From positions 1-64,000 of the IMG/VR virus record IMGVR_UViG_3300031707_002715: a stretch of DNA of 64,000 nucleotides, one strand, 5' to 3'. The DNA comes from a virus. The notes below the pieces were generated by a model. That model searched no databases and was not told the origin of the DNA. It saw nothing but the letters and a program-made list of their open reading frames with translations. Each line of letters begins with the position of its first letter. Position 1 is the first letter of the stretch. Below, one piece after another: positions 9,919-55,049 of this stretch. Both the position numbers and the translations under genes were made by a program.

Positions 9919-10812
9919 ATGAATGCATTAAGATGTGGCGACACTACTACAAGAGATAATTTAAATGTGTTTATTTATGACAGGACGGGTCGGTTAAAAG
10001 ACCCATATAGTATAACGTTTGATCTTTATGATGTGACGTCTGGTATACCAGTATTAATCGGTGGACCTGATAGATTACCGATAAAATTCGCTGTTGGTAG
10101 TTATTTTGCTCCATGGCAAGTACCGACAAATGAAAATCTTGGATCACATAAAATAGTCTGGAAAATAAAAGAAACAGTTTCTAGTGTGGCTTCTTTAAAT
10201 CCAGAAGAATTTGAAATTGTTTCAAGACTGACTTTAATAAATGAGGAATATCCAGAACCAATAAAACGATTAATTTTCAAATTGAGAGTCAAATTAAGAG
10301 ATGTGAATCCGGACAGAGATTATCATTTCTCGCCCCCGACATCATTACAAGAAATAGCGGGATTTACTGAAACACGTGGATATCGGTGGCCAGACGAGTC
10401 GTTAGTCAATCATATTGAAGATGCAAGTAATTATATAAATTTATTTCCACCAGCAACAACGTATGATATGATGACATTTCCAGCTGCATGGGAACCATTG
10501 ATGTTAATGGAAGCTGAAGTTAATGCATTATACGATTTGTCAATTTTATGGGCTAATGAAGAATTTAACTATTCATTAGCTGGAATTTCATTAGATATTA
10601 GACGGTCAGACAAATATTCTGGATTAGCTAACCAACTTCAATCTATGGTTGACAAACGACTCGAGACTGCAAAAAAGAGAATACTTTGTACAGTCGGATT
10701 ACGACAGGATAGATATACATATAGCAGAGGGGCTAGTTTGGGGCCATGGACGAGCGGGCAAAATATAAAGCGCTGGACTGGGTCGAGATTCAATAGGATT
10801 CAAATTGGATAG
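9919..10812 (+). CDS. Head-tail connector-like protein with N-terminal beta-sandwich, paralogue 4
   Basis: 297 residues, with AAGGATG before ATG. Residues 1-95 are the fourth copy of the shared domain (LRCGDTTTRDNLNVFIYD, GSYFAPWQVPTNENLGSHKIVWKIKE). Residues 110-297 are mostly helical: RLIFKLRVKLRDVNPDRDYHF, then a WPDESLVNHIEDA segment and a C-terminal region with SRFNRI. The LR(V)KLRD-xNPDRxYHF plus helical layout is what I associate with head-tail adaptor proteins of large myoviruses, but this is family memory, not an alignment. Last gene before a 125-nt gap and the accessory block. Confidence 0.6.
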   Translation: MNALRCGDTTTRDNLNVFIYDRTGRLKDPYSITFDLYDVTSGIPVLIGGPDRLPIKFAVGSYFAPWQVPTNENLGSHKIVWKIKETVSSVASLNPEEFEIVSRLTLINEEYPEPIKRLIFKLRVKLRDVNPDRDYHFSPPTSLQEIAGFTETRGYRWPDESLVNHIEDASNYINLFPPATTYDMMTFPAAWEPLMLMEAEVNALYDLSILWANEEFNYSLAGISLDIRRSDKYSGLANQLQSMVDKRLETAKKRILCTVGLRQDRYTYSRGASLGPWTSGQNIKRWTGSRFNRIQIG

Positions 10813-10937: not shown

Positions 10938-12167
10938 GTGGACTTAGCCATTCATCAATGCAAAGATTGTGGTACAGAAGTTAGAGTTAATAAGTATAGT
11001 ACATTCTTTAGATGTAAAGAATGCAAAGAAAAACATCGACAACGAACATTAATTGAAAGATCGAAAAACAAATGTACTAATTGCGGAAAAGAGTTTGAAA
11101 AAGATATACATTCAAGAGAATATCACTGCCCTGAATGTAAATTAAAAGTAGAAATGTTAAAAACTCATACACGATGTAGTCGATGCTGTAGAATATTACA
11201 TAGAGATAATTTTCCCATAGGCAATACAACTGTTTGTTTTGATTGTAGAAACAATAGAGAAGAAGAAAAGGAACAGTTAAAAAATAAAATATATTTGCGA
11301 TCTTGTTATCGTTGTGGAGCCAATGTACAAACTACAAGATTTGCAACTATTGTAATATGCGATAATTGTGAAGAACAAAAGCAATTACAAAAGTTTGAAA
11401 AAAAGAAAACGGTATTTATTAGAAAATGTTTAACTTGCGGTTGTGATGTCGAGGTTAAAAGTGGTCACATAACATTTATTCATTGTGATAAATGTAAATC
11501 AGAACAACATGAAGCTAAATACAAAAAACGGCAATTTAAAGAAAATTCGTTCAAATGCAAATATTGTGGTAATAGAGAGACTGTCAATGATGAAGATAAA
11601 AAAACATATAATTACAAAACCTATGTATGCACTAAGTGTAGAGTAAATATAACGTATAAAGTTAGACGTGTAGAAAAAAGATGCATTGTTTGTGACAAGT
11701 TAATGATAGCTGATAAAAGAAGAACGACTGTTGTTTGTAATGAATGTAAGTCTAAAGGATTAAAACCTGACTTAATCAAATTTGGCGTTAAACAGCATTT
11801 TGGTTATTATGGTACAGCTTCTGATGGACATAAATGGTGGTCGTTAAATGAACAAGATGTTGAAGAATGGTTAATACATAATAATATACGACACATATGT
11901 CAAGCTAGAATCGGTGACACAATAAAGCACGCAGATCAGTATTTACCAGATTATGATTTATATATTGAGATTGATGGTTTGAGTAGAAAAGATGATATTG
12001 ATTGGAATGGTAAATTATCTTTATATGATAAGTTAAGCTTAAAATATAAAATAGTAAAACCTGTAGAACATCATTATTATATGAACAAAGATAAATGTTT
12101 TGAAGAATTAGATAAAGAATTTGAATTTTTGAAACCAATAAATACTACAAATGAAACATCTAGCTAA
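10938..12167 (+). CDS. Seven-zinc-ribbon protein with putative nuclease domain
   Basis: 409 residues from GTG preceded by GAGGTGAAAC. Fourteen CxxC motifs (CKDC, CKEC, CTNC, CPEC, CSRC, CFDC, CYRC, CDNC, CLTC, CDKC, CKYC, CTKC, CIVC, CNEC) pair into about seven zinc ribbons across residues 1-275. The C-terminal 125 residues (HFGYYGTASDGHKWWSLNE, VEEWLIHNNI, ADQYLPDYDLYIEIDG, KLSLYDKLSLKYKIV) have the acidic D...ExD and later Lys layout of restriction-endonuclease-like (VSR or PD-(D/E)XK) folds. It is probably a DNA-binding nuclease, perhaps homing-type, inserted in the structural genes. The C-terminus overlaps the next gene by 17 nt. Metal binding is clear; nuclease activity is inferred. Confidence 0.75.
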   Translation: MDLAIHQCKDCGTEVRVNKYSTFFRCKECKEKHRQRTLIERSKNKCTNCGKEFEKDIHSREYHCPECKLKVEMLKTHTRCSRCCRILHRDNFPIGNTTVCFDCRNNREEEKEQLKNKIYLRSCYRCGANVQTTRFATIVICDNCEEQKQLQKFEKKKTVFIRKCLTCGCDVEVKSGHITFIHCDKCKSEQHEAKYKKRQFKENSFKCKYCGNRETVNDEDKKTYNYKTYVCTKCRVNITYKVRRVEKRCIVCDKLMIADKRRTTVVCNECKSKGLKPDLIKFGVKQHFGYYGTASDGHKWWSLNEQDVEEWLIHNNIRHICQARIGDTIKHADQYLPDYDLYIEIDGLSRKDDIDWNGKLSLYDKLSLKYKIVKPVEHHYYMNKDKCFEELDKEFEFLKPINTTNETSS

Positions 12168-13167
12168 AATTCAAACTGAGTTTTTGAAATATTCAAATGA
12201 TGCGCAGTATTTCTTGGACCAGGCGATCAAACGAAATGACAGGAAGGCTATTAATTATTGGTTGAAAATATTGAATAGGAGGGCTAGGAAAAAGTATCCA
12301 GCAGAAATTATAACCAATAGAGAGTTTCAAGAGTTAAAGAAACGACCTAATGATAAGATTGAGATCGATAAGGTTAAAAAAGAAGCGATTAAAAAATTTG
12401 AGCAGTTAGGTTTTTCAAGCTTGCCCGTTAGAGATATCAAGCCATTGCAAGAATTAACGGATGTAGATAAGAGGAAAGTGTTAAAGAATCATAATGGTGT
12501 GCCAAAATATGGTTTTACAGTTAATGGTAATGTATACTTAAATATGAAAGTGATAGATGAGGGCGGAGAGTTTACTTTAGAGGACGTAGTGTATCATGAG
12601 TTGGGTCATCATGTTTTTCATAGTCAATATCAGTCCCAGATAATCGAGATAATGAATAAATATGGGTTAGATGAAGATTATGATGAAGATTTTGCTGAGT
12701 TATTTAGTTATAAGATGACCGGTAAGTTGAATGACGAGAGTTTGAAGATGTATAAAGTGTTTCGAGATTTTGAGAGTGATGTGTTAGGAAATATAAAAAC
12801 AGAATTTGAAAAGTATTTGAGTGATACTATTAGTGATGATTTGAGAGGTTTGCCGTTTATTACTAGTGTTAATATTGGTAGAGATTTTTACGATAATTAT
12901 CAAGTAGTAGCAGAAGATGAAAGAGTGTCTGGTCTAAATACTAGGATAAATGTTAATTTGAGCGATGATCACGTAGAATTTAATACGATTAGTGTTAATA
13001 AAAAAGATCGTGGTAAGGGTTATTCTTCAGCGATGGTAAAAGTAATTAATGATGCAATTCTTGGGTCTGAAAAGAAAGATATTCCAGTGTACGTGTCTGA
13101 TCCTAGAGATCAAAATTTTTGGGAGCATATGAAAGATAAATTTCCTAAATTGAATTGGCGAATATAA
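12151..13167 (+). CDS. Zincin metallopeptidase fused to GNAT-like domain, tagged N-terminus
   Basis: 338 residues, overlapping the upstream gene by 17 nt. It opens with the tag MKHLAKIQTEFLK shared with the next two genes. Residues 140-190 carry a zincin site: HELGH at 149-153 and a downstream DFAELFS with Glu183 as the probable third ligand, as in gluzincin-type minimal metallopeptidases. The C-terminal 90 residues look like the second half of an N-acetyltransferase (GNAT): VEFNTISVNKKDRGKGYSSAM contains the acetyl-CoA-binding R-G-x-G-x-x-S pattern near residue 285, followed by FWEHM. A peptidase plus acetyltransferase fusion is unusual in a phage structural region. Possible roles are modification of host proteins on entry or virion maturation. 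Both motifs are directly visible; substrates are unknown. Confidence 0.72.
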   Translation: MKHLAKIQTEFLKYSNDAQYFLDQAIKRNDRKAINYWLKILNRRARKKYPAEIITNREFQELKKRPNDKIEIDKVKKEAIKKFEQLGFSSLPVRDIKPLQELTDVDKRKVLKNHNGVPKYGFTVNGNVYLNMKVIDEGGEFTLEDVVYHELGHHVFHSQYQSQIIEIMNKYGLDEDYDEDFAELFSYKMTGKLNDESLKMYKVFRDFESDVLGNIKTEFEKYLSDTISDDLRGLPFITSVNIGRDFYDNYQVVAEDERVSGLNTRINVNLSDDHVEFNTISVNKKDRGKGYSSAMVKVINDAILGSEKKDIPVYVSDPRDQNFWEHMKDKFPKLNWRI

Positions 13168-13176
13168 AGAATAGTT

Positions 13177-13455
13177 ATGAAATATTTTGCAAGTATTCAG
13201 CGTGAATTTTTGAAATATGCTATTGTTTTTTCATCAAAAGAAGAGTTTGAAGAGTACATGAAAAAACATCCTAAGGGTGATAGGCAAAATCATTCAATTA
13301 AAGTACCAAAACTTGGCGATGAGGAACATAGCTTAGGTCAATCTAGAATGTTCACTAATAAAGGTTGGTTGTATTTCGACCAAGATGACGAAGGTCGAAA
13401 AGATTTAGATGAAGAACGAAGAAAACTACAATCATTTTTAAAGAGGGAAGAATAA
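13177..13455 (+). CDS. Small tagged protein with HPKGDRxNH motif
   Basis: 92 residues, 9 nt after the upstream stop. It starts with the shared tag MKYFASIQREFLKY and continues FSSKEEFEEYMKKHPKGDRQNHS, a charged helix and loop of a kind I have seen in proteins of large phages (YxKxHPxADxxNH). The rest is highly charged, with KDLDEERRKLQSFLKREE at the end. No catalytic motif was found. Because the tag is most of the similarity to its neighbours, it may be a packaged cargo or internal protein; this is inference. Its stop overlaps the next ATG by one base. Confidence 0.65.
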   Translation: MKYFASIQREFLKYAIVFSSKEEFEEYMKKHPKGDRQNHSIKVPKLGDEEHSLGQSRMFTNKGWLYFDQDDEGRKDLDEERRKLQSFLKREE

Positions 13456-14264
13456 TGAGACATTTCGCGAGGATTCAGGTCGAATTTTTGAAATTAGTCG
13501 CTGATGACATGAGTGGAACAGTTCACAAGGAGAATGAGAAGCGTTTCGAATTGTCTGAATTGCCGGACGAATGTAAAGATCTAAAACCGACGCTTATCAA
13601 GCAAGGCACATTAAGACAGTGTAATAATGGTAATAATAATATTGTCGCTTATGCTCGTATTAGGATGAAAAAAGAAGCAGATGATGAGCCGAAATATAGT
13701 CTCGGCGTGAAGCATTATCCGTTGCATCAAGAAGCTGAGACCGAAGTTTCGAAAGAGATGTTTGATAGTTTTTATCCCGATAATGTCGATAGGCCTGAAG
13801 AGAAACTGCGGTATAGTTTGCCTGGCAAATGGGACGTCGACGTTAAAGACAGCGGTAATAAGATTGTGGCTGAATGCGAAGCAAATGAAGTTAGAGTGCC
13901 GAAGCATTGGAAAATTAAGAAGACATTTAAGTATGCAAATTTGACTAGTGATATGGAGACAAGTATAGATAAACCGTCAAAGATTTCAGTGTTTTTGGGT
14001 GGTGAGGTCGAAGATAATACGTGGCGGAAAGATTTAAAGAAAATGTATAAAGATTTAGTATTTCTTGATCCGTATGATGACGATTGGAAACCGACTAATA
14101 ACATTTATGATGAGTGTGCTGCTATGGTCAAGGCTGATAAAGTGATATTTTATAAAGGCGGAGATTTAACGAATAAAGAAAAAGAATTTTTAAAAGCGAT
14201 TGGTAAGTCGTTTCAAGAATTCAATGATTTAAATTCGCTAAGAAAATACGTGAGTGAATTATGA
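13455..14264 (+). CDS. CYTH-domain plus nucleoside deoxyribosyltransferase-like fusion, tagged N-terminus
   Basis: 269 residues with the tag MRHFARIQVEFLK. Residues 26-168 show CYTH (triphosphate tunnel) features: an ExExR variant of the ExExK signature (ENEKR), LIKQGTL, YARIRMKK, YSLGVKHY, EAETEVSKEMF, EEKLRYSLPG, KWDVDV, IVAECEANEV and RVPKHWKI. Residues 176-240 match the nucleoside 2-deoxyribosyltransferase-like fold: ISVFLGGEVEDNTWRKDL, VFLDPYDDDW, and DECAAMVKADKVIFYKGG. CYTH enzymes hydrolyse triphosphates or cyclise ATP; the second fold cleaves or transfers N-glycosidic bonds. The combination suggests a nucleotide- or signal-handling enzyme, possibly against host nucleotide-based defence. 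Domain calls are by motif; activity is inferred. The next gene starts in its ATGA stop. Confidence 0.68.
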   Translation: MRHFARIQVEFLKLVADDMSGTVHKENEKRFELSELPDECKDLKPTLIKQGTLRQCNNGNNNIVAYARIRMKKEADDEPKYSLGVKHYPLHQEAETEVSKEMFDSFYPDNVDRPEEKLRYSLPGKWDVDVKDSGNKIVAECEANEVRVPKHWKIKKTFKYANLTSDMETSIDKPSKISVFLGGEVEDNTWRKDLKKMYKDLVFLDPYDDDWKPTNNIYDECAAMVKADKVIFYKGGDLTNKEKEFLKAIGKSFQEFNDLNSLRKYVSEL

Positions 14265-14680
14265 ACAACAAGATTATCGTGGCAATTGATTTTGACGGTA
14301 CGATTGTGCGAGCAGAAGATCCGACATTGATTAATGTGACAAAAGATTTTGTTTTGTTGCCTCATGCAAAAGAAGTGCTAGATTGGATGTATCAATATTT
14401 TTTCTGCATTTTGTGGACGTGTCGTGATGACGTCGCATTGCAAAATGCATTAAGCTTTTTAAGTAGAAATAACATTAAATTTCATGCAATAAATCAAAAT
14501 GCACCATTTTTAGATTTTCAAACTAGTAATAAAATTTATTTTGATTATAGTATTGATGATAGAACAAGTATGAATAGTATAGATTGGTTAGTGATACGAC
14601 AATATTTACAGAAAAAATATTTGAAGACTGATGAAGAAACTATCGTTGACAAAGTATTAATTGAGGTCTATCCATGTTAA
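14261..14680 (+). CDS. HAD-superfamily phosphatase
   Basis: 139 residues, ATGA overlap with the upstream gene. Motif I DFDGT is at 10-14, giving nucleophile Asp10 and acid/base Asp12; motif II is Thr53 in LWTCRDD; an acidic DYSIDDR segment near 95-101 supplies the C-terminal metal ligands. The small size and motif spacing resemble compact phage and bacterial HAD phosphatases, some of which act on nucleotides. It lacks the N-terminal tag of the three preceding products. Position next to the CYTH-NDT fusion suggests a shared nucleotide pathway, which is inference. Confidence 0.78.
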   Translation: MNNKIIVAIDFDGTIVRAEDPTLINVTKDFVLLPHAKEVLDWMYQYFFCILWTCRDDVALQNALSFLSRNNIKFHAINQNAPFLDFQTSNKIYFDYSIDDRTSMNSIDWLVIRQYLQKKYLKTDEETIVDKVLIEVYPC

Positions 14681-17460
14681 AGTTTCAATCGTTTTCACCT
14701 GATAAAAATAGCACCGGTGTGTCACAGACGACGCCTGTTTATTTTGAGATACGTAATTTACAGACCACGGCTGTTAAAAATACAATAAATGTAAAAATTA
14801 ATGGCATCGATGCACTAATTAACGGTGTATTTCAGACAGGTTTTTCAGGTGCAATAAATAATAATGTTCACGGCTATGATGTTTATGTTCAACACGTGGT
14901 CGTATTTACTCATGGTCAAATAATAAACGTCTGGTTGTCAGTTAATGATAATAATGGATACGCATTTATTGATTCTTATCATTTTACTGTGATAATTAAC
15001 GATACTGTTGCACCGTCTACGATTGCGAATCCTAAAGGTGGAACGTATGCGTCTCATCAACTCGTACGATTAATTGTAAGTAAGCCATCAAGTATTATTT
15101 ATTATACGATTGATGGTTTAATGCCGACAACTAGTTCTACTGTGTATTTTAGTCCAATAGTCATCGCGCAAAACACAACATTAAAGTTTTTTAGCATCGA
15201 TTCTGATGGCAATAGAGATTATGTGCATGTCGAAGTCTATCAGCTTGATGCATCGGTTGACGATCATGTAGTACCAGTCACTACAGCAAGTATTATAAGC
15301 GGTACATATTATGATCCAATATCTATAACGTTATCGTGCAGTGAGCCTGCGACAATTTATTGGACGACTGATGGTTCGATACCGACATTAACGAATTATG
15401 CAGGTAAAGATAGTTCTGGTACTATAATTAAAGTCACTTCAAATTCGACATTGAAATTTTTTGCAATTGATGAGTTTGGTAATCAAGAAAGCGTTAAAGA
15501 AGAAACATACGTTATTAGTTCTAAAGAAAATAACATTGTACCAACAAACGTATTTGTTAATTTTCCATATATTAAGAATACTGTAGATATTTCATGGGAT
15601 GATATGATGCCGATGCAATCTGAAATTATGGGTTATAACGTCTATCGGTCTCAAGTCGATGCACAATATTTAGAAAACATTGTGTCTCACGATGTATTGA
15701 CGACAGATAATGTTTATTCTAAAGAAGATGGAACGTTTGTAAAAATTAATACCGATTTGGTAACGACGACATTTTATCGCGATCAATATCTTAATAGAGT
15801 CATTCTTAAAGAAGACGTGTCAGATCAATTTAGGTTTTCGACATTAATTGATGTCAATACTGATTTTAGCGGGCAAATTGTTAATAGCGATCAATGGAAT
15901 GCAATTGATCCTGATAGGTTATTTAATCAATCAGACGGTATAAATTTTATTGATGGGTATGGTAACAATCGTGGAGCATATTTTCAATCAGCATTTATAT
16001 TATCCGGAGATTTCGATATACAAACTGCATATAAATTATATGATTGGCCGATAACAGATTCAATTGATCATTCTGAGTGCGCATTTATCGTGTCGTATAA
16101 TCAATATTCATATGTTAAAGTATCGAGAGTTAGATATGAAGCAACAGACTACATTATTAGCGAAGCATTTGTGGATTCGACTAGAATTGGTATAGTCAGA
16201 ATATTAATATCAGGTGGAGAAGGAAGCATTAGAATTGTTCGATCAGGTCCGACTAATTCTGATATTTCTACTTATTATTATGATGGTAGCACATGGGTAC
16301 TATTAGATTCTTATATTGATTTTACGAGAAATGATATCCAGGTTAAATTTTATGCAAAAAGTTCTAATGTTGGTATAAATATAAAATTTCTTTATTTTCA
16401 GGCGACCACAGCTAACGCAAAATTACCATTAATAAAAGATGTACGAGGCAATTACAGTATTCAAGTTAGACATACGCCAATAGCAACTAGTAGAACTGAA
16501 AAATTGTACACAGATCAACTATTTGATGTTGAAGTGTTTATTGATGGTAAAAAAGCTGCCATTAAATCTGTTGATGGATTAAAAGGCGTAATAATTTTAG
16601 ATACAGAACGACAATACGATCAGACTTTACAAACATGGTACGAACCACCATTACCGTCGGTTCAATCTTTAGTTACGGTTACATATCAGTATAATGTTAA
16701 TTCAATAAAAATGAATTTGAGCAAGTTACCGTTTTATAAAGTGGTAGCTGTTTTAAGCGATAATTCTGAGACACGTCTTGAATGGTGTCCGTCTATAACG
16801 CTTCAGAGCGACAAGTTAGATTATATGTATCTCGAAGCTATACGACGTAATTCGTGGTTGCTTGATCAAGCCGGTGAAAGGGTGCTATTATTTATTCGAA
16901 AGACTACGGGTGAAAAATGTAAATGCTATAAACGTAATGAAAGGACTCATGGACAACCTCAAGTTGGTTCTTGTAAGATTTGTTGGGGTACGGGTTTTGT
17001 CGGTGGATATGAAGGGCCGTATGAAATTAGGATTTCGCCGTTTCAATCTGAACAAAGAATTAGCATGCAAGAACGAGGTATGAAATTAGAAAATATAGAA
17101 AGCACATGGACATCAATATCGCCAATTATAACGCAAAGAGATTTTATCGCTCGTAGAAACAGTCAAATGTATGCAATTGGTCCGATATCTACACCTCAAG
17201 TTAGAGGCATTGCGACGCAGCAGCATTTTTCTGTTGAGCATATTGATTCGACTGATATAAGATATGAATTTGTTGCATCATTAAATCTATTTAATTATCA
17301 AAGGCAAGTGGGATTAAGAAAACCATTTGCTCATTATACTGATGATCAAGTTATCATTGATGGAGAAGTGACAGAAAATGATAAAATAAGGACAGACAAA
17401 GGTGTTGATTTTGATAGTAAAAAAGGACGGACTATAACTTTTGAAAACTCTCTGTTTTAA
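14674..17460 (+). CDS. Large neck or tail virion protein with Ig-like repeats and zinc motif
   Basis: 928 residues, overlapping the HAD gene by 7 nt. Residues 1-110 form a beta-rich N-terminal domain. Two chitobiase C-terminal-type Ig repeats follow (STIANPKGGTYASHQLVRL with YYTIDGLMPTT, and TTASIISGTYYDPISITL with YWTTDGSIPT). Next comes an FN3-like stretch (VDISWDDMMP, GYNVYRSQ), a jelly-roll-like region, and one copy of a VDGLKGVIIL...VTVTYQYN module also found in the sheath and baseplate. Near residue 750 lies a CKC...H...CKICWGTGFVGG motif, probably a metal site. The C-terminal 150 residues are unrecognised. Likely a neck or tail-attached structural protein of the virion. Confidence 0.7.
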   Translation: MLKFQSFSPDKNSTGVSQTTPVYFEIRNLQTTAVKNTINVKINGIDALINGVFQTGFSGAINNNVHGYDVYVQHVVVFTHGQIINVWLSVNDNNGYAFIDSYHFTVIINDTVAPSTIANPKGGTYASHQLVRLIVSKPSSIIYYTIDGLMPTTSSTVYFSPIVIAQNTTLKFFSIDSDGNRDYVHVEVYQLDASVDDHVVPVTTASIISGTYYDPISITLSCSEPATIYWTTDGSIPTLTNYAGKDSSGTIIKVTSNSTLKFFAIDEFGNQESVKEETYVISSKENNIVPTNVFVNFPYIKNTVDISWDDMMPMQSEIMGYNVYRSQVDAQYLENIVSHDVLTTDNVYSKEDGTFVKINTDLVTTTFYRDQYLNRVILKEDVSDQFRFSTLIDVNTDFSGQIVNSDQWNAIDPDRLFNQSDGINFIDGYGNNRGAYFQSAFILSGDFDIQTAYKLYDWPITDSIDHSECAFIVSYNQYSYVKVSRVRYEATDYIISEAFVDSTRIGIVRILISGGEGSIRIVRSGPTNSDISTYYYDGSTWVLLDSYIDFTRNDIQVKFYAKSSNVGINIKFLYFQATTANAKLPLIKDVRGNYSIQVRHTPIATSRTEKLYTDQLFDVEVFIDGKKAAIKSVDGLKGVIILDTERQYDQTLQTWYEPPLPSVQSLVTVTYQYNVNSIKMNLSKLPFYKVVAVLSDNSETRLEWCPSITLQSDKLDYMYLEAIRRNSWLLDQAGERVLLFIRKTTGEKCKCYKRNERTHGQPQVGSCKICWGTGFVGGYEGPYEIRISPFQSEQRISMQERGMKLENIESTWTSISPIITQRDFIARRNSQMYAIGPISTPQVRGIATQQHFSVEHIDSTDIRYEFVASLNLFNYQRQVGLRKPFAHYTDDQVIIDGEVTENDKIRTDKGVDFDSKKGRTITFENSLF

Positions 17461-29904: not shown

Positions 29905-32670
29905 ATGGCAGCATTTGTATCAGGTTATCTTGCGCCAGGCGTTTATGACAGAACGCTGTTAGACCCTAATGTTGCGAGTTTATTGGGTGGTCTTAGAATT
30001 CCAATCGTTATTGGAACTGGTCAAGAACAAAAGTCGTTATTGAATCAAGACATGGTTCGCGGTTCGTCAGCTTCAGTAGATAACAAAGCGTCAAATGAAG
30101 ATGTGTCATCTCAAGCTGATGGTGCAAATACCGTATTCCAAGTCACATATTTTCCTATTGTAACAGGTGAGGGTAGCGGAATTGTTACTAATAGGGTGTC
30201 AGACATCACTGTAAAAGTCAATAATAATCCAGTGCCGGTTACTCGAGTCGATGGACTTAACGGTTTAGTCACGTTACAAATACCACCTGCAGCTACAGAT
30301 AGTGTTTCTATTACGTATTATTTTAAATTGACAGATACAAAAGTCGATAATGAAAATGTGTCTGATCAAGCTACAGGTAGTAATAGAACGTTTTATACGC
30401 ATTATAAGCCGATTACTGATGGTCGAGGAAGTGGAACGCCGACTACGACGATCACTGACGTTGTTGCTAAAGTAAATTCGTTAGTTGTTACCATTTCTGA
30501 AGTCAATGGCACTGATGGTACTGTAGTTTTAACAAATCCGCCCGGTGGATCTGATACAGTGACACTTTCATATTGGTTTAATCAATATGCAGACACTTTT
30601 GATCTTTTGCCGCAAAATAATTTAACGAGCGTTTTGTCTGTTGGCGATTCACCAGATCTTAATAATTATATTGAAGGTGTTGATTTTATTATTCTTGATG
30701 GTGATAAGATTCAATGGGGTGCGGGTTTCAAACTCAGCGTCATAACTCATACTTCAGGTTCAGTCTATTTTGATGATACTCAGATTTCAACACTTTTGGT
30801 TGACGATCGTATTATTTTAGAAGACGTGTCGAGTCAATTTACTGGTGTTGAAAATCATTGTGTTGTTCGGTATTTACCGATTGTTGATGGTAATGGTAGA
30901 GATATCGTGACAGACGATCCTACTAAAGTTAAAGCTTATGTTAATAGCACTGAAGTTGATGTCACAAGAGTTGATGGTGCTACGGGTACAATTTATCTCA
31001 AGAATATTCCGGCACCCGCAACTAGAGTAGAAGTATCATATTGGAGAAGTGAATTAATTGATGAGACTTATACTCTTGAAGTTGTGACTGCCGGTGTTGC
31101 CGGTGTAGGAACTTACAAGATTACGACCGTTGTTCAAGGCTCATTGTATAATGTCAAGGTCACCGGTTATACGTCTATTGTCACACCTACAATGATGGAT
31201 TCTCTTGGTGCTCATTTAAAAGCTAATAAGAATAGAGCCGTTGATGAAGTCGTAACATTGACATTTACAAGCGCGACTGAATTCACTGTTACATCTTCAA
31301 ATCCCGATGGTACAGGTACAGGCACGACAACCACTGGCAAAACAGGACATACGTTTATAGATTCAATAACCGGACTTCAATTTACAATTACGCCTGATGC
31401 CGGTTATTCTGGTGGTGATACTATTACTCTTAAATGTCATAATGATGACGTGCCTGGCACGCGATCAGCCGGTCCTGGAACAGGTACAGCAGGTCCATTT
31501 GAAACAGGCGTGTCGATTACAAATTATGTAATTCCCGGTGCTAGAGTAATTGTTTCTGATACAGCAAATACAGTATCAGCTGATAAAACTAATATACAGA
31601 CTTTTGATAAAGCTGGTAGTGAACCCGCTGTTGGTTCGACATATTATATTAGCTACTATTATCAGAAGGATGATTTTGAGCCTAAAGTTTTTACTAAATT
31701 TAAAGATATTACGTCTGAATATGGCGATTTGGCTATTGGTAATGCTATTACATTATCAGCATTTTTGATGATGATTAATGGCGCTGTTGCAGTTATGTGC
31801 AAGCAAGTGCTAAAAGAAACGGGCGAAGACACTGCGACAGACCAAGCTTATATAGATGCGCTTAAGGAAATTGAGAAACCAGTTAATGGTATTAAACCTC
31901 GAGTTATTCATGTTACCACTACATCTCAGACTGTGATTGCTGCACTTAAAACACATTTGGCACAAATGTCGTCTGAACGTAGACGGTCAGAAAGGACAGC
32001 TTTTATTGGATTTGCAGTTGGAACAGAACCTCAAGACGCTGCAAATTATGCAAAGTCTCTTAGTTATGGTCGTCTTGTAGCTGTTTATCCTGATGGTGCA
32101 ATAATTGGATTGACAGATGAACGAGGTGTAGAATCTGAATACATTCTCGATGGCAGCTATATGGCTGCTGCGCTTACAGGATTGAACATTAGTACAGCGT
32201 ATGATGTTGCAGAACCAATGACTCGAAAGACGATTACTGGTTTTAAGAGACTTATTAGAGTCATGGACGAAGTTGAAATGGATGAGACTGCTTCTGCCGG
32301 TGTAACAATAATTCAAGACGAATCTGGAGTAATGAAAGTTCGTCATGCATTGACGACTGATATTGGCAACGTATTTAATAAAGCGCCAAATATCATAACG
32401 ATCATGGACGAAACACAGATTCAAGCTCGAGCAGCGCTCGACCAATATATTGGTAAGAAATTCTTACCTAATACGGCCGGTAACGTTGCTTCTACATTAG
32501 CTGCCACACTTTCAGCATTAAAAGAAGCAGAGATTATTTCTGATTATGCGAATGTTACTGCTGAACCTTCAGATACTGATCCTAATTATTTGGTCGCTGA
32601 AGCTTTCTATAAACCAGTATTTGAATTATCATATATCAGAATAACATTCAATATTAGAGCAAAACTCTAA
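29905..32670 (+). CDS. Contractile tail sheath protein with inserted beta modules
   Basis: 921 residues, much longer than a minimal sheath. The N-terminus FVSGYLAPGVYDRTLLD is the sheath start that links neighbouring subunits. The conserved C-terminal third (SERRRSERTAFIGFAVG, SYGRLVAVYPDGAIIG, GSYMAAALTGLN, ENPxT-equivalent PMTRKTITGF, then FLPNTAGNVAS and FELSYIRITFNIRAKL) is clearly a sheath domain. Between them are three copies of a VSSQxTG...VNxxxVxVTRVDGxxGxVxLxxPP...VxVSYW module at about residues 60-150, 150-225 and 310-380, probably forming outward-facing protrusions. The sheath polymerises around the tube and contracts on infection. Start supported by GAAAGGACG. Confidence 0.92.
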   Translation: MAAFVSGYLAPGVYDRTLLDPNVASLLGGLRIPIVIGTGQEQKSLLNQDMVRGSSASVDNKASNEDVSSQADGANTVFQVTYFPIVTGEGSGIVTNRVSDITVKVNNNPVPVTRVDGLNGLVTLQIPPAATDSVSITYYFKLTDTKVDNENVSDQATGSNRTFYTHYKPITDGRGSGTPTTTITDVVAKVNSLVVTISEVNGTDGTVVLTNPPGGSDTVTLSYWFNQYADTFDLLPQNNLTSVLSVGDSPDLNNYIEGVDFIILDGDKIQWGAGFKLSVITHTSGSVYFDDTQISTLLVDDRIILEDVSSQFTGVENHCVVRYLPIVDGNGRDIVTDDPTKVKAYVNSTEVDVTRVDGATGTIYLKNIPAPATRVEVSYWRSELIDETYTLEVVTAGVAGVGTYKITTVVQGSLYNVKVTGYTSIVTPTMMDSLGAHLKANKNRAVDEVVTLTFTSATEFTVTSSNPDGTGTGTTTTGKTGHTFIDSITGLQFTITPDAGYSGGDTITLKCHNDDVPGTRSAGPGTGTAGPFETGVSITNYVIPGARVIVSDTANTVSADKTNIQTFDKAGSEPAVGSTYYISYYYQKDDFEPKVFTKFKDITSEYGDLAIGNAITLSAFLMMINGAVAVMCKQVLKETGEDTATDQAYIDALKEIEKPVNGIKPRVIHVTTTSQTVIAALKTHLAQMSSERRRSERTAFIGFAVGTEPQDAANYAKSLSYGRLVAVYPDGAIIGLTDERGVESEYILDGSYMAAALTGLNISTAYDVAEPMTRKTITGFKRLIRVMDEVEMDETASAGVTIIQDESGVMKVRHALTTDIGNVFNKAPNIITIMDETQIQARAALDQYIGKKFLPNTAGNVASTLAATLSALKEAEIISDYANVTAEPSDTDPNYLVAEAFYKPVFELSYIRITFNIRAKL

Positions 32671-40596: not shown

Positions 40597-42839
40597 ATCA
40601 GAATCAGTACAAACAACCAACAGTCGACACTGTTGCACCTGATGCTGTTATTTACATCGATGGCGATCGCACTATTAAATTGAAACGAATTAATACTAAT
40701 GGCCAAATAGTCGATGATGCTGTCGACTTTATGAACTTTGTTAGTAGCATCTCTGTGTCTAAAGGTATTGATCGTGTACCAGGCGAAGCATCAATATCAG
40801 TTAGGGCACCGAAATATATGTTTGACGGTATATATGGCTCTATAAAAAATGTATTGTCGACAATGTTGGAAGTTGAAATTTATATTAGGGGTCGTTTTTT
40901 AGTACAAGGCGAACCTCAATATTATCCGGTATTCTGGGGAATGATAACGAATCTTTCTGAGTCTGAAACTGCGGGTGATTTTATAACAACAACAATAACT
41001 TGCCAAGACATGATGAGGTGGTTACAAATTACGAGCGTCAACGTTCAACCGTCTGCATATAATTCAACGATGCCTCTCGATGCAAATGGTGAAACAGGAT
41101 TGAACAATCAAATGACTGCATTTGGAACATTTTTCGTAAAGACAAGCGCGCCGGGTATAATAGCAAATCTGTTGTCGTTATCTATAAATGAAAACTTTTT
41201 TGATTTTAAAAATATCACTGATAGAAGTGTAGCTATTGATAAAGCAATCATTGATTCTACTGTTAAATTTGATAATTTTAGAGATGCTAATGATCAATTA
41301 ATAAAGAAGTGGAATGAAAAATTTAGCGCGCTTTCGACTGCATTATATATTTACGGTTATAAAGGACCAGGACGAACAAACATAAATAATATAAAAGATA
41401 TTAGCATTGATTTAAGCGCGTATTCATATATTTATGGCACTCGAGTCATCACTGTTAAAAAAGTAGATAGCAATGGAAATGTCATTGCCACTGAGACACA
41501 AAAAACAGATATGCCGCGGATAGACATTTCAGTGCTATATCCAGAGGGAGCAGAGGCATTTAACACTGCGTCAGCACCAATATTTGTATCGAATTTACAA
41601 AATAGATTAGAAGTCGCGAACAATGCAAAAGAGCAAATGCATTTTGAATTTTTTCAAGATGTTGATGGCACTGTTGTATTGAAACCACAATTTTATAACA
41701 TTGATACTAGAAGCAATCCTATATACGTTATAGAAGATATTGATATCGAAAATATAAACATAGTCGAAGATGAAAGTCAAGTGTGGACTAGAATTGACGT
41801 GCAAGGCACGCCGACAAATGGGTTTCTTTATAGTCAAGGACCAGACACAGCTAATTCATATCATGGATTTGCAATTGCTTTTGATAAATTAGAAAAATAT
41901 GGATTACGACAACAGACAATTAATACAAATTTTCTTACAAGTGTAGAAAATGTTTATTTGTATGCTAGACGTGAACTTAGCAGACGAAACAGTTTAGTAG
42001 TCAACGGATCGATTTCTATTGAAGGGCGGCCAGAATTAAAATTAGGTTATCCAGTATACCTTCCTGGAAAAGATGCATTTTATTATGTTACAGGGATCGA
42101 CCACGAATTTACATTTGGTGAATCTTTTACGACTAGATTAACAGTTACAGCTATAAGACAGAAAAAACGAGATGCGCTAGGCGAAATTCTCAAAAATTTA
42201 TATACTAAAACTGACGGCACGTCATCTACCCAAAATAATATCGCAGGTAAAGACGTGTCGTCTGATGCTGATAATATAATGAAAAATATTTCAAAACTTT
42301 GCGATCCATCACAGTCTGTAACTTTTACTGCCCAGCGACCAGTTTATAAATATAAAACGCTTGATGATATTTTGCAATATCAAGGTACATTTAGATTTAT
42401 TTACAATGGGAGCGATCAGCAATCATCAGATCCTCGAATATATCAGCAGGTCACAGATAAAGAAGGGTACATATTGAATGGTGAAGGTTTTCCATTTGGT
42501 AGAGATTTATCATTAACTGAAGATTTTCGTATAGTAGTTTCAGATGCGACCCAAAAATCAGGCACTGAAATTGCATCATCAATGACGTTGATGACAGCAA
42601 CGGGCAGTCAAAAGAGCGTGTTAAGTTTTCAACAACCATTAACGCTCAACCAAGTTGAAGACGTTAGAATATTAAAAGGATTAGGAAATAGATCAGCATC
42701 TAGTATTGCAGCTGCAATGCAACCATCGTCAGAGTCGACTGAAGCACTTAGTAAGCAATCTTTAACATCTTCGACGCTCGATGCTAATCAGGTATCATTT
42801 GGTAAAGCTAAGAAAGTACCGTCAACGACTGGGAAATAA
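40593..42839 (+). CDS. Baseplate hub protein (gp27/gpD-like)
   Basis: 748 residues. The N-terminal beta-barrel (MNFVSSISVSKGIDRVPGEASISV, YYPVFWGMITNLSESET, TTTITCQDMMRWL) and central region (MHFEFFQDVDGTVVLKPQFYN, QVWTRIDVQGTPTNG, RRELSRRNSLVVNGSISIEGRPELKLGYPVYLP, YYVTGIDHEFTFGESFTTRLTV) match gp27/late-control-D-type hubs. The last 190 residues, after the core, are an extension of unknown role. It links tube to spike in the baseplate centre. The ATGA overlap and the spike gene 2 nt downstream fit. Confidence 0.8.
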   Translation: MNQNQYKQPTVDTVAPDAVIYIDGDRTIKLKRINTNGQIVDDAVDFMNFVSSISVSKGIDRVPGEASISVRAPKYMFDGIYGSIKNVLSTMLEVEIYIRGRFLVQGEPQYYPVFWGMITNLSESETAGDFITTTITCQDMMRWLQITSVNVQPSAYNSTMPLDANGETGLNNQMTAFGTFFVKTSAPGIIANLLSLSINENFFDFKNITDRSVAIDKAIIDSTVKFDNFRDANDQLIKKWNEKFSALSTALYIYGYKGPGRTNINNIKDISIDLSAYSYIYGTRVITVKKVDSNGNVIATETQKTDMPRIDISVLYPEGAEAFNTASAPIFVSNLQNRLEVANNAKEQMHFEFFQDVDGTVVLKPQFYNIDTRSNPIYVIEDIDIENINIVEDESQVWTRIDVQGTPTNGFLYSQGPDTANSYHGFAIAFDKLEKYGLRQQTINTNFLTSVENVYLYARRELSRRNSLVVNGSISIEGRPELKLGYPVYLPGKDAFYYVTGIDHEFTFGESFTTRLTVTAIRQKKRDALGEILKNLYTKTDGTSSTQNNIAGKDVSSDADNIMKNISKLCDPSQSVTFTAQRPVYKYKTLDDILQYQGTFRFIYNGSDQQSSDPRIYQQVTDKEGYILNGEGFPFGRDLSLTEDFRIVVSDATQKSGTEIASSMTLMTATGSQKSVLSFQQPLTLNQVEDVRILKGLGNRSASSIAAAMQPSSESTEALSKQSLTSSTLDANQVSFGKAKKVPSTTGK

Positions 42840-52300: not shown

Positions 52301-55020
52301 AAAGTTTAAAAATAATAAGCGACGATCCGACGCAACACGAGATTAATTATACTATTACAGGTATTGGTAAAAATAAGCCAGTAATCGAAGTTGCATCTCG
52401 GTTAGAGTTCGATAGGACAAACGTTAGAGAAACTTCACAGAAAATGCTCGAAGTATTTAATCGCGGATCTGCGACATTACAAATAACAAACATATCTATA
52501 ATAGAGAATTTAGCATCGTATTCAATTTCATCGGCGTCATTTGCTAGCATTCCACCGGGTGCATCGACTCAATTTACGATAATATTTTCACCGCAAAGCG
52601 CGCCGAAAGATTATATTACTGGTAAACTCAAAATAGTGAATAATACTGACAATCCTAATGTTGAAGTGCTACTTAAAGGAAAAGGCAATCAACCGAAAGG
52701 TGAATGGCAAGCATTTAATTTAAGCTCGATGATGCCTGACGCGATAATTTCTACAGCAAATGCCATCGATGATGTAATCGATCCATTAAAGACGGTGTTA
52801 AATCTTATTAAGCAAGTAGTTGATTTAGTAAAAGTATTATTAATCGATACGCAAAGTGCGTTAAAAGTTATTTTGGATAAGATATTTAAAGTTATTAAGA
52901 ACTATACAGACGATCTGCTATCATTTGGTGTGTACATTTTACCCATATTTCCGAGTACGTCATATTACGATCCCGATAATAATACGAGCGATTTTGCAAA
53001 ATTTTTAGCGAGTATTGGTGGTGGATCAGATTATTTTAAAAGGAAGATTGCCGATTCATTTGATGATTTATATGATAGTCAAAGACCGCAGTTTTCTGAT
53101 TCTGCTATTTGTGGTGCATATGTGATTGCAGTTGATTCCGGAAATGTTTCTGAAGTAGTAAAGGGTATTATCGCGTTAAATAAAATATTTACTGCTGTTG
53201 ATTGGCAACCAAATGTGCAAGAACCACAATCATTAGAAGCCATATCCGGTTCTCAAGTCATATTACGATGGGAATTACCAGAATTTTTGACGTTTAATGT
53301 TGCAGGTATTTTTAATAAACAGAAGTTTATAGATCTTATTGAAGGGTTTGAAGTTTATCGGTCTGAAGAGCCGTTAAAGATGGTGACTGCTACTCAGAGA
53401 CACACTGATCCAAATAATTCTGCGACACAAATATCGAATGTCGGTGATGTTATTGATGTGACAACGTTTAGAAAGTTAGATCCAATAGGTACAGTCGCTG
53501 CCGATCAATATCATTTTAGGATTGAAAATTTTGCTACGGGTTGGAAAAATGCAGACAATAAAGATACAGCAAAAGCAATGGGTTATGAATTTAATGACGA
53601 TGATGTCCAATTGGGCAAAAATTATTATTATGTTGTCAGGACAAAGCTCGGCGACATATATAGTAAATTGTCAAATGAAGTTACAGGTTCTAGAATTGAT
53701 ATTGAAATATTGCCGGCAACAGATGCACTTAATCGATGCGTCAATTTTAGATGTATTAAAACTAAAGGAAATACAAAAATAATACGCACGTTGCAGCGAC
53801 CGATCGTTAAATTAATCAATAGAACCGGTATTATTATTCAATCAGAGTCTAGATATAATAAAAATGGTGTTATACCAGATGCAAATGAGCAGCAAGTCAA
53901 CACATTTACTTTTTTTATTAGCTCTGTGAATATTGATATCAATAATATAATTATAAGAAATCCGACAGAAGCTGAGCGAAGAATTGCAGTCGATAAGTTG
54001 ACTGTAAAGTCGACATTATTTTTTGATAATGGTGAAATAAAGATCTGGGACGATGGCACTTCTACGGGTACAAGTGGTACGAGCAATACAGATATTGAGT
54101 TAAATAGGGAAGGATATTTTAACATTTTGAATGATACAAAGTTAGTTCCCGGTTGGGATTTATTAGTGACGTATAGAAACAATAATACATATTTAACTAT
54201 AAACGACATATCAAATGCTGGGTACAAACAAGGTGATTATATAGTAATTGAATATTACGCTAGTGATTATACGGCGCAATGTACAAAACAAATGGACGTT
54301 TTTGATGCTTTTAAATGTAATAGTGGTGAAAATAAAGGTATATGTCCCAATTATTCTAATGCCAGATGTATATATCATGGTGGGACTGTTTGTTTAAATA
54401 ATGGTAATACGAAACTCGGTAATAGATGTATATCTAATAAAACATTTTTTGATGCATATAGGTGTCAAGATTCATCGATGGGTGGTGAAGTTAAAGCTAT
54501 TGACAAAATGAAAAGGAATGATCTTAATTATTGTATCGATACTACTGGAGTCTGTGCAGGATATCAATCGTTAAGCGAACAGAGTGTCGGATTATATCCA
54601 AACTGGATAGCATTGACGTCAATGATGTCGCTTATAAAGCCCGTAGACGATTTTATTTTGACATTACAAGCATGGGTTAATAGAGAGATTGATGCGATAC
54701 AAAAAGGGTCACAGACAGTCGAACAGTTCATTGATTTATTGTCAAATAAGATTGAAGAATTAGAAAAGTTTATAGATACAATACAAAAAATATTAGATAC
54801 ATTGCTTTCAATTTTTAGTAGTAATGTTGGTTTTTATATATTGTCTATAGACGCTGCGACAGGCGGGCCGCAACGTGTAAAACAGTTAATTCAATCGGCT
54901 GAAGGCGGGCCTAGTTCTGGATCGAGCGGTTATACTGCTGGTATAGTTTTGTTTATTGGAGCGCCTGATGCAAAAACTGTTCGAACAACGTATCAATTTT
55001 TAAGATTGTTTTTCAAATGA
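49372..55020 (+). CDS. Giant baseplate protein with ten ASPM-SPD2-Hydin-type Ig repeats
   Basis: 1882 residues. Residues 1-1106 hold about ten ASPM-SPD-2-Hydin (choice-of-anchor D) Ig repeats of about 105 residues (first strand LDFGSLSKGQ, LSFGSVPVND, LDFGTIQVGE, INFGSVAVGD, FDFGESPINI and divergent relatives). One repeat contains an inserted copy of the dispersed TDTGVITV...VRYDHK module. Residues 1110-1190 are amphipathic helices (IDDVIDPLKTVLNLIKQVVDLVK). FN3-like parts follow, then nine cysteines between about 1636 and 1728 (CTKQ, CNSG, CPNY, CIYH and others), then a helical C-terminus. Probably a very long baseplate arm or surface-exposed strut. Confidence 0.75.
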   Translation: MIQLSSSILDFGSLSKGQTSTRQVTIYNISASSVNITNIISSSSDYEIAPLAFSIDANSSKNISIKYTANDILFAIGTISVSNTAGPDEVINTTANILEPIVILITSPLNFPKLSIDDSLTLSKNIGNSASNGSQLIANVLSIDSNFVVMSPVIIVNAGSTADILIKFLPTTVGIKSGTINITTNDSIGSYSFNVNGEAVIPTYTLSSSFLSFGSVPVNDYKTMTFSVTNTSIDVNLIISSVTIGDSVFSIDVSSVTIAPLQSQIFTVTFLPLTSETISGLIALSNNTGSDINVNYSGTGLIVPAIQLLSTNIDIGIYTIFISKTFDITIQNVGVVDLVINDIVFPIISGTIFSSSISYPYIVNRGDEVVVTVTVNSSVEITYSGIISIVSNAYNSPHAINISGISQSALIVVDVASLDFGTIQVGEQKILSFVVKNTRDVDLSVLINDINAFTVSENNFIVSGHSSHTISVTFTLDTVGSVSEVLTIISNDIFSPTVAVNLLGSADVNHSFTLIPDKITNNYISKSITSITELTIINRSLLTATIDSLTVTDLLGVATYSITVNNLPVTLAPGEATIVDVSLLASTVGKVASDLKFNTHVSGIATSIVIRYEGEIFAPTINLSDDSINFGSVAVGDTSFENVIITNDNSNVDLSVELTSNNDAFHFKQSGEDDNLVVSYVNSKYVVDTTKQGLILDSVTVVDSLTGEQYALGDPANVNEFSVNTDTGVITVNSVLNNKSLNVRYDHKLSTLTLNIHANASTTISIGFSPQRTGIQFGTITVLSNDDVNPTLIISLAGDGIPNIASMIQDSALVKFIAKVGKSVSQKVKLKNTGTVKLYVTSVTCVLPFSVANSQYGIDPNETFDLEIIFQPTNDSDINQTVTVHSNAPDLIIPVNGQGAYSHILLPTSFDFGESPINIKTDKILTVSNTAIVNLDVQLQINSAYFSVTPLDFTILANSTYDVVVSFKPTEEITYSKSLKIISDDPTQHEINYTITGIGKNKPVIEVASRLEFDRTNVRETSQKMLEVFNRGSATLQITNISIIENLASYSISSASFASIPPGASTQFTIIFSPQSAPKDYITGKLKIVNNTDNPNVEVLLKGKGNQPKGEWQAFNLSSMMPDAIISTANAIDDVIDPLKTVLNLIKQVVDLVKVLLIDTQSALKVILDKIFKVIKNYTDDLLSFGVYILPIFPSTSYYDPDNNTSDFAKFLASIGGGSDYFKRKIADSFDDLYDSQRPQFSDSAICGAYVIAVDSGNVSEVVKGIIALNKIFTAVDWQPNVQEPQSLEAISGSQVILRWELPEFLTFNVAGIFNKQKFIDLIEGFEVYRSEEPLKMVTATQRHTDPNNSATQISNVGDVIDVTTFRKLDPIGTVAADQYHFRIENFATGWKNADNKDTAKAMGYEFNDDDVQLGKNYYYVVRTKLGDIYSKLSNEVTGSRIDIEILPATDALNRCVNFRCIKTKGNTKIIRTLQRPIVKLINRTGIIIQSESRYNKNGVIPDANEQQVNTFTFFISSVNIDINNIIIRNPTEAERRIAVDKLTVKSTLFFDNGEIKIWDDGTSTGTSGTSNTDIELNREGYFNILNDTKLVPGWDLLVTYRNNNTYLTINDISNAGYKQGDYIVIEYYASDYTAQCTKQMDVFDAFKCNSGENKGICPNYSNARCIYHGGTVCLNNGNTKLGNRCISNKTFFDAYRCQDSSMGGEVKAIDKMKRNDLNYCIDTTGVCAGYQSLSEQSVGLYPNWIALTSMMSLIKPVDDFILTLQAWVNREIDAIQKGSQTVEQFIDLLSNKIEELEKFIDTIQKILDTLLSIFSSNVGFYILSIDAATGGPQRVKQLIQSAEGGPSSGSSGYTAGIVLFIGAPDAKTVRTTYQFLRLFFK

Positions 55021-55049
55021 TAATCACGTATATTTGTTGGAGGTTTTAA

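What the first reader, a model, noticed from the sequence alone, without database searches (positions are those of the whole stretch)
12151..14264. Three consecutive proteins share an N-terminal tag M(K/R)xxAxIQxEFLK
The first 13 residues of three otherwise unrelated products read MKHLAKIQTEFLK, MKYFASIQREFLK and MRHFARIQVEFLK. The conserved Glu after IQx recalls Glu-directed prohead cleavage sites, and T4 internal proteins and Alt carry short N-terminal capsid-targeting peptides (MKTYQEF type). Inference: a packaging tag that loads effector enzymes into the virion for delivery with DNA.
Basis: partly seen in the sequence, partly recalled or inferred. Interest (0 to 1): 0.78.

Follow-up and report, generated by a model that had tools for sequence, protein, structure and literature searches.

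The report
Shared packaging tag on giant-phage proteins
A family of giant bacterial viruses puts the same short peptide on the front of dozens of otherwise unrelated enzymes, and the evidence suggests that it is an address label that loads them into the virus head, is probably trimmed off there, and lets them be injected together with the viral DNA.

Summary
The three N-termini are at the stated coordinates. Ten proteins in this 126-kb phage record carry the tag. Across nine related giant-phage contigs I found about 100 (up to ~30 per genome), on roughly 60 unrelated bodies, often followed by a second motif (W..LS.EeQ..YL..HP.SK). The tag is conserved as protein, not as DNA, and is portable: a two-domain enzyme in the window has one tag, while in two relatives the domains are separate genes, each with its own tag. 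Bodies include an Alt-like ADP-ribosyltransferase; T4 Alt is the textbook virion-packaged enzyme.

The packaging idea is well supported; the proposed Glu-directed cleavage is not. An unbiased scan, which recovers T4's known (I/L)-x-E site, shows K-x-A is the over-represented pair in the head precursors of this clade. The tag carries K-x-A at residues 13-15, so I predict cleavage after residue 15. Bacillus phage G, a distant relative, has its own, different N-terminal tag (MKRLxKK[AS]) on ~30 proteins, with similar cargo (ADP-ribosyltransferase-like, nucleoside deoxyribosyltransferase).

Virion location and cleavage are inferred, not shown. Verdict: a new, greatly expanded variant of the T4 capsid-targeting sequence.

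The parts
12151..12195 (+). Tag 1, MKHLAKIQTEFLKYS (K13-Y-S15, a relaxed form of K-x-A)
12151..13167 (+). Tagged protein 1, 338 aa: HELGHH zinc-metalloprotease-like centre (weak SprT-like hit, E 0.03) and GNAT-acetyltransferase-like C-terminus (weak, E 0.06)
   Evidence: both domain hits are below the curated cut-offs
13177..13221 (+). Tag 2, MKYFASIQREFLKYA (canonical K13-Y-A15)
13177..13455 (+). Tagged protein 2, 92 aa: tag, degenerate second module (EEYMKKHPKGD) and a short conserved body; close relatives in G003 (55007-55291) and fused into G007/G008 proteins
13455..13499 (+). Tag 3, MRHFARIQVEFLKLV (K13 kept, A15 replaced by V)
13455..14264 (+). Tagged protein 3, 269 aa: domain 1 (residues ~20-156, CYTH-like by eye only) plus nucleoside 2-deoxyribosyltransferase-like domain 2 (PF15891, E 5e-5, below cut-off). 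The two domains are separate, separately tagged ORFs in G001 and G003
9919..10812 (+). Context: connector-protein homologue (Tunturi_5 gp319, E 2e-29) upstream of the tagged trio; 77-78% identical in G001/G002, where tagged genes also adjoin it
14674..17460 (+). Context: homologue of Tunturi_5 gp322 (minor tail protein, E 5e-33) downstream of the trio, so the tagged genes lie inside the virion-structure region
29905..32670 (+). Context: tail sheath (phrog_2839, E 6e-33), used to place the phage near Tunturi_5, LR745208 and Bacillus phage G

Best explanation
The peptide is a capsid-targeting sequence. During assembly a short N-terminal helix (residues ~2-15, centred on I-Q-x-E-F) docks each tagged protein onto the scaffold/core of the prohead. 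The phage's own prohead protease, whose specificity in this clade is inferred to be K-x-A, then cuts after residue 15 and releases the body inside the head. The body is injected with the DNA in the next infection. The second module (W..LS.EeQ..YL..HP.SK), present in about two thirds of copies, is a helical hairpin that stays on the cargo and may hold or guide it. Shown: the tag, its portability, its protein-level conservation, its K-x-A, the enrichment of K-x-A in head precursors, and the effector-type bodies. Inferred: docking, cleavage, packaging and injection.
For: (1) About 100 tagged proteins in nine contigs on ~60 body families, 42 of them singletons. (2) Codon use at conserved tag residues matches the genome background, so selection acts on the peptide. 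(3) Each separate polypeptide has its own tag: window protein 3 is two ORFs in G001 (57% and 55% identical parts) and in G003, each tagged. Fused ORFs keep an internal, decayed tag (G004 585-aa protein at residue 486; G007/G008 155-aa proteins at 58). A poly(A)/CCA-polymerase-type protein is untagged in G000 but tagged in G001/G002. (4) An unbiased residue-pair scan of head-module proteins puts K-x-A at rank 3 of 1933 (G001), 1 of 1978 (G002) and 1 of 1730 (Tunturi_5); tail genes of the own phage give rank 919. It is also enriched in phage G (rank 4 of 1951) and LR745208 (47 against 21.3 expected). The same scan on T4 gp67/68/21/22 returns its known I/L-x-E as ranks 1 and 3. Proteins with the most K-x-A genome-wide include scaffold, protease and portal; Ser is 3-fold enriched after the Ala. 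(5) K13-x-A15 is exact in 69 of 93 tags and relaxed in 79. (6) Cargo includes an Alt-like ADP-ribosyltransferase (PF03496 8.5e-20; PHROG Alt-like 3e-15), topoisomerase IB, M17 aminopeptidase and FtsK/SpoIIIE ATPase. (7) Bacillus phage G (MCP 47% identical) has a different shared N-terminus, MKRLxKK[AS], on 32 proteins (4.9 expected, maximum of 500 shuffles 13), including genes flanking its portal, protease and scaffold, with PARP-like and Nuc_deoxyri_tr2 cargo.
Against: I found no virion proteomics for this clade. The head module (MCP, protease, scaffold, portal) is not in the 126-kb record itself, only in relatives G001/G002. About a quarter of the tags lack an exact K-x-A, two of the three in the window among them, so cleavage may not be universal. 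In the module model the K-x-A lies inside a continuous helix (residues 2-20), not in an exposed loop. A few tags sit at C-termini or internally. Some cargo (CCA/poly(A) polymerase, aldo-keto reductase) has no obvious reason to be injected. Tunturi_5 has K-x-A enrichment but no detectable repeated tag, so the motif does not require a tag.
Confidence: 0.7

Rival explanations
1. The tag is a localisation signal for another site, such as an early-infection or replication compartment, a membrane or a phage-encoded hub, and has nothing to do with the head.
For: Portability and one tag per polypeptide fit any address label. Some cargo is metabolic or nucleic-acid related: CCA/poly(A) polymerase, topoisomerase IB.
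Against: K-x-A, the motif specific to head precursors of the clade, is conserved at the end of the tag. Cargo includes an Alt-like ADP-ribosyltransferase. Phage G shows a parallel tag on genes inside its head module.
Confidence: 0.17
2. The tag is a packaging signal but is not cleaved: it binds scaffold or portal and stays on the cargo. K-x-A at 13-15 is a coincidence of a Lys/Ala-rich helix end. (A sub-case of the packaging reading.)
For: K-x-A is not universal and lies in a predicted helix. T4 CTS work separates targeting from processing: Asp at position 10 blocks processing but not targeting (PMC9026906).
Against: K13-x-A15 is exact in 69 of 93 tags while residue 14 is free, the pattern expected of a P3-x-P1 protease site.
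Confidence: 0.22
3. Glu-directed cleavage after the conserved Glu10, as the first reader proposed (T4 or phiKZ type).
For: Glu10 is conserved in 88 of 92 tags; T4, phiKZ and SPN3US proteases cut after Glu (PMC9026906, PMC10052503).
Against: Q-x-E, [LI]-x-E, [SA]-x-E and EF are all at chance in head precursors of G001, G002 and Tunturi_5, whereas K-x-A has z 5.3-8.7.
Confidence: 0.04
4. The shared start is a DNA or RNA element (late promoter, ribosome-binding or recombination site) that happens to be coding, or the residue of one exploded gene family.
For: Genes often sit in head-to-tail clusters, which recombination could build.
Against: Codons at conserved residues follow genome-wide usage. 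Bodies are unrelated. Tags also occur internally or at C-termini.
Confidence: 0.02

Closest known systems
T4 capsid-targeting sequence (CTS) of IPI-III and Alt, removed by gp21
   Same: Short N-terminal peptide on unrelated internal proteins; ends at a P3-x-P1 prohead-protease motif; shares the look EF[IL]xEA with MKTYQEFIAEA (T4 sequence from memory); cargo includes an Alt-like ADP-ribosyltransferase.
   Different: Up to ~30 tagged proteins per genome against about four in T4; motif K-x-A instead of I/L-x-E; usually followed by a second HPxSK module; sequence homology to the T4 CTS not demonstrable over ~6 residues.
SPN3US / phiKZ head propeptides (gp245 / gp175 proteases)
   Same: Giant phages with many internal and ejected proteins, and N-terminal propeptides thought to target proteins to the prohead; SPN3US gp53 and gp54 share an identical 15-residue start (PMC5694885); Ser is preferred after the cut (PMC10052503), as Ser follows K-x-A here.
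   Different: Those sites are A/S-x-E and most of those propeptides are over 100 residues; no short tag common to dozens of proteins is described in the papers read.
P1 DarB N-terminal capsid-targeting signal
   Same: N-terminal 30 residues suffice to bring a reporter into the head (PMC9024508).
   Different: No consensus among the Dar N-termini was found there; different sequence, few cargo proteins.
Bacillus phage G N-terminal MKRLxKK[AS] set (found here)
   Same: Shared N-terminus on ~30 proteins, K-K-A/S ending, similar cargo types, related MCP, portal and protease.
   Different: Different tag sequence, no IQxEF, no HPxSK module.

Membership tests
T4-type capsid-targeting sequence | Short (10-20 aa) N-terminal peptide shared by otherwise unrelated proteins | tested here: met
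   ~15 aa tag on ~60 body families
T4-type capsid-targeting sequence | Peptide ends at the cleavage motif of the phage's own prohead protease | tested here: inconclusive
   K13-x-A15 coincides with the pair enriched in head precursors, but the protease specificity is inferred, not measured
T4-type capsid-targeting sequence | Cleavage motif is I/L-x-E (gp21 specificity) | tested here: not met
   [LI]-x-E at or below chance in head precursors
T4-type capsid-targeting sequence | Phage encodes prohead protease, scaffold and portal | tested here: met
   In relatives G001/G002: protease phrog_18299 9.7e-16, portal phrog_16240 3e-36, MCP phrog_2522 5.6e-69, acidic scaffold-like ORF between protease and MCP. 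Not found in the 126-kb own record, which is classed linear (often a fragment)
T4-type capsid-targeting sequence | Tagged proteins are found inside the head and need the tag to get there | not testable with these tools
   needs virion proteomics and tag-reporter fusions
T4-type capsid-targeting sequence | Sequence homology to MKTYQEFIAEA | not tested
   EF[IL]xEA resemblance seen by eye only; the tag profile A1 was not run against T4, and only the HPxSK profile was (no match)
phiKZ/SPN3US propeptides | S/A-x-E cleavage motif | tested here: not met
   [SA]-x-E at chance in head precursors
phiKZ/SPN3US propeptides | Long propeptides (mostly over 100 aa) | tested here: not met
   tag is ~15 aa
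Phage-nucleus (Chimallivirus) import | ChmA shell and Imp1/PicA importer; import without terminal signals | not tested
   The review PMC13282480 states nuclear import does not use conventional terminal signals; ChmA was not searched for

The most novel reading that the evidence does not exclude
This giant-phage clade, and phage G in parallel with its own tag, loads an interchangeable arsenal of about 30 enzymes into each head with one portable address peptide. A prohead protease of a new specificity, K-x-A, removes it. Virion-delivered effectors can then be read from genome sequence alone, and new ones are captured by gene fusion to the tag.
Probability: 0.55. Interest if true: 0.88.

Novelty: new variant of a known kind. 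Interest (0 to 1): 0.76.

Why it matters
If right, the tag turns genome sequence into a list of proteins that giant phages carry in their heads and inject. That list now rests on virion proteomics of a few cultured phages and includes defence-evasion and host-takeover enzymes. It gives a testable cleavage motif (K-x-A) for the prohead proteases of the phage G-like superclade, and a short peptide that could carry chosen proteins into very large heads.

Tried and rejected
Glu-directed cleavage: tested, head precursors show no x-x-E enrichment. DNA-level element: codon test negative. Tag in the nearest annotated relatives Tunturi_5, LR745208 and phage G with the A1 profile: no match; phage G turned out to have a different tag. 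Known family for the module: no significant Pfam, PHROG, NCBIfam, PADLOC or PDB match; BFVD fold search gave nothing. First HPxSK pattern was in the wrong register and found nothing; corrected. Protease structure from two sequences: pLDDT 31, unusable. CYTH identity of domain 1 of window protein 3 is my reading of the sequence only; the PDB profile search found nothing. My first list of untagged FtsK homologues was a gene-calling error: they carry the tag from an alternative start in frame or an upstream ATG, so that argument was dropped. The Yoloswag HPxSK match is not in the frame of the annotated glycosyltransferase, so its closeness to the protease is not used. In G001 and G002 the head module is not the single most K-x-A-rich gene block: windows around a 632-649 aa unknown protein exceed it; I read that protein as another head/core component, which is unproven.
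Full report
OBSERVATION. The window is bases 1-64000 of a 126,451-base phage record. Seven further N-terminal copies lie in the rest of the record, most of them in one minus-strand cluster at 96-101 kb. Several of these show a second conserved part, W..LS.EeQ..YL..HP.SK.

HOW FAR IT EXTENDS. A DNA pattern for the tag hit eight other IMG/VR contigs. A profile of ten tags found 119 places in nine records, with 35 in a 416-kb contig and 31 in a 330-kb contig. My own gene calls gave 107 proteins with tag and/or second module. Consensus over 92 unique tags is M[KN]H[LF]AxIQxEF[LVI]KxA; E10 is kept in 88, F11 in 90, K13 in 77 and A15 in 74, with position 14 free. Shuffled proteins give no site above score 14, against 95 N-terminal sites observed. 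After removing the module the bodies fall into 60 groups, 42 of them single; some remote homology may be missed at E 1e-3.

IT IS A PORTABLE PEPTIDE. Codons at conserved positions follow genome-wide usage, for example GAA/GAG 66/25 against 0.80/0.20 and ATT/ATA/ATC 53/29/5 against 0.54/0.34/0.11. Window protein 3 (13455-14264) is one tagged two-domain polypeptide; in contig G001 its halves are two adjacent ORFs, 57% and 55% identical to it, each with its own tag, and in G003 they are two tagged ORFs separated by a third tagged gene. Conversely, where two tagged ORFs have fused, the inner tag persists in decayed form (G004 585-aa protein, residue 486; G007/G008 155-aa proteins, residue 58). A poly(A)/CCA-polymerase-type protein is tagged in G001/G002 and untagged in the own genome. 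One tag per separate polypeptide is what an address label predicts.

WHAT CARRIES IT. Bodies with clear families: ADP-ribosyltransferase exoenzyme (8.5e-20; PHROG Alt-like RNA polymerase ADP-ribosyltransferase 3e-15), M17 aminopeptidase (5e-103), topoisomerase IB (2.5e-36), FtsK/SpoIIIE ATPase (1e-32), aldo-keto reductase (1.8e-24), poly(A)-polymerase head domain (2e-22). The window trio has only weak hits: SprT-like metalloprotease plus GNAT, none, and Nuc_deoxyri_tr2. The trio lies between homologues of Tunturi_5 head-tail connector and minor tail proteins.

THE CLEAVAGE MOTIF. The head genes were located in relatives G001 and G002 through Tunturi_5: TerL, portal, protease, scaffold-like acidic ORF and MCP in a row. 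They are not in the own 126-kb record. I then asked, without choosing a motif for the ranking, which residue pair (any two residues, 0-5 apart) is most over-represented in head-module proteins relative to shuffles of the same proteins. K-x-A ranks 3 of 1933 in G001, 1 of 1978 in G002 and 1 of 1730 in Tunturi_5, but 919 of 2205 in the own phage's tail genes. G001 and G002 are close relatives and not independent; Tunturi_5 is more distant. It is also raised in phage G (rank 4 of 1951) and in LR745208 (47 against 21.3; other spacings near chance except a mild excess of adjacent K-A). As a positive control the same scan of T4 gp67, gp68, gp21 and gp22 returns I-x-E and L-x-E, the documented gp21 motif, at ranks 1 and 3. 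Per protein, the K-x-A excess in G001 and G002 is led by a 632-649 aa unknown protein and includes the scaffold, the protease, a small neighbour of the unknown protein and, in G002, the portal. Ser is 3-fold enriched after the Ala, as it is at P1' in SPN3US (PMC10052503). Glu-type motifs are at chance. In the tag, K13-x-A15 is exact in 69 of 93 and [KR]-x-[AS] in 79. The natural reading is that the prohead protease cuts after residue 15. This is inference from sequence statistics.

A SECOND TAG IN A RELATIVE. A de novo search for short patterns shared by many N-termini recovers IQxEF in G001/G002 and, unasked, a different one in Bacillus phage G: MKRLxKK[AS]. A fixed version of that pattern occurs in the first 40 residues of 32 of 611 phage G ORFs, 4.9 expected (maximum of 500 shuffles 13), and in 1 of 328 at residues 100-140. 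The pattern was written after seeing the de novo result, so the count is descriptive. Carriers include gp13, gp17 and gp20, which flank its portal, protease and scaffold-position genes, a Nuc_deoxyri_tr2 enzyme (8e-16), a PARP-like protein (2.5e-4) and a SLOG protein (4e-6). The MCP of phage G is 47% identical to that of G001. Two relatives with different tags but similar cargo and the same K-x-A-rich head proteins argue for a shared loading principle. Tunturi_5 shows the K-x-A enrichment but no such tag.

STRUCTURE. AlphaFold2 on 56 aligned modules gives a helix 2-20, a turn, a helix 23-32, and low confidence from residue 49, with pLDDT near 90 over the first 40 residues. So the tag with its second module looks like a detached helical hairpin, not part of each enzyme's fold; only the module, not a full-length tagged protein, was modelled. 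The predicted cut lies inside the first helix, which would need local unwinding. The second module alone occurs, 1-4 copies each, in other large phages with different N-termini.

COMPARISON. T4 internal proteins and Alt enter the prohead by a 10-20-residue N-terminal capsid-targeting sequence that gp21 removes; targeting depends mainly on residues 4 and 7 and processing on 8 and 10 (PMC9026906). P1 DarB uses an N-terminal signal too (PMC9024508). SPN3US gp53 and gp54 have identical first 15 residues (PMC5694885). The present system works like these. It is not a member of the T4 gp21 set by cleavage specificity, and it is far larger in number of cargo proteins.

VERDICT. Packaging tag: probable. 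Cleavage after Glu: rejected on present evidence in favour of K-x-A. Virion location, cleavage and injection remain to be shown.

Noticed in passing
G001 215470-217368 and G002 217797-219746 (outside window): A 632-649 aa protein of unknown function has the strongest K-x-A excess in both genomes (21 against 6.8 and 24 against 7.2 expected); a weak homologue in Tunturi_5 (302827-304518) is also K-x-A rich. Candidate new core/inner-head protein.
   Followed up: partly
L131, L136, L137, L139-L142, L144, L146, L148, L150-L155, L158-L164, L166-L168, L170: The second module WWxxLSxEEQxxYLxxHPxSK occurs alone or with other N-terminal peptides in many other large-phage contigs; no database family searched describes it.
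   Followed up: partly
G001 41131-42402 and G002 30359-31630: A sigma-factor-like protein directly upstream of the large terminase carries the HPxSK module and an F/V-x-K-x-A/S stretch but not the IQxEF tag; possibly a virion-packaged sigma factor.
   Followed up: partly
window 10938-12167: Zinc-ribbon-rich 409-aa protein with an endonuclease-like C-terminus between the connector gene and the tagged trio; looks like an inserted homing-type nuclease.
   Followed up: no
L007 1869-4835 (record 100869-103835, minus): SF2 helicase ORF of 988 aa that appears to contain an intein with a LAGLIDADG-like endonuclease.
   Followed up: no
G002 216552-216671: A C-terminal tag on a 133-aa ORF continues in frame past a TGA, suggesting a recently split or decaying tagged gene.
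   Followed up: no
L129 5001-5078 (Erwinia phage Yoloswag NC_047815): The HPxSK match lies in a long open frame overlapping, but out of frame with, the annotated glycosyltransferase; the annotated reading may be wrong there.
   Followed up: partly
window 14261-14680: HAD-like phosphatase-type ORF (phrog_1238) directly after the tagged trio, without a tag.
   Followed up: no
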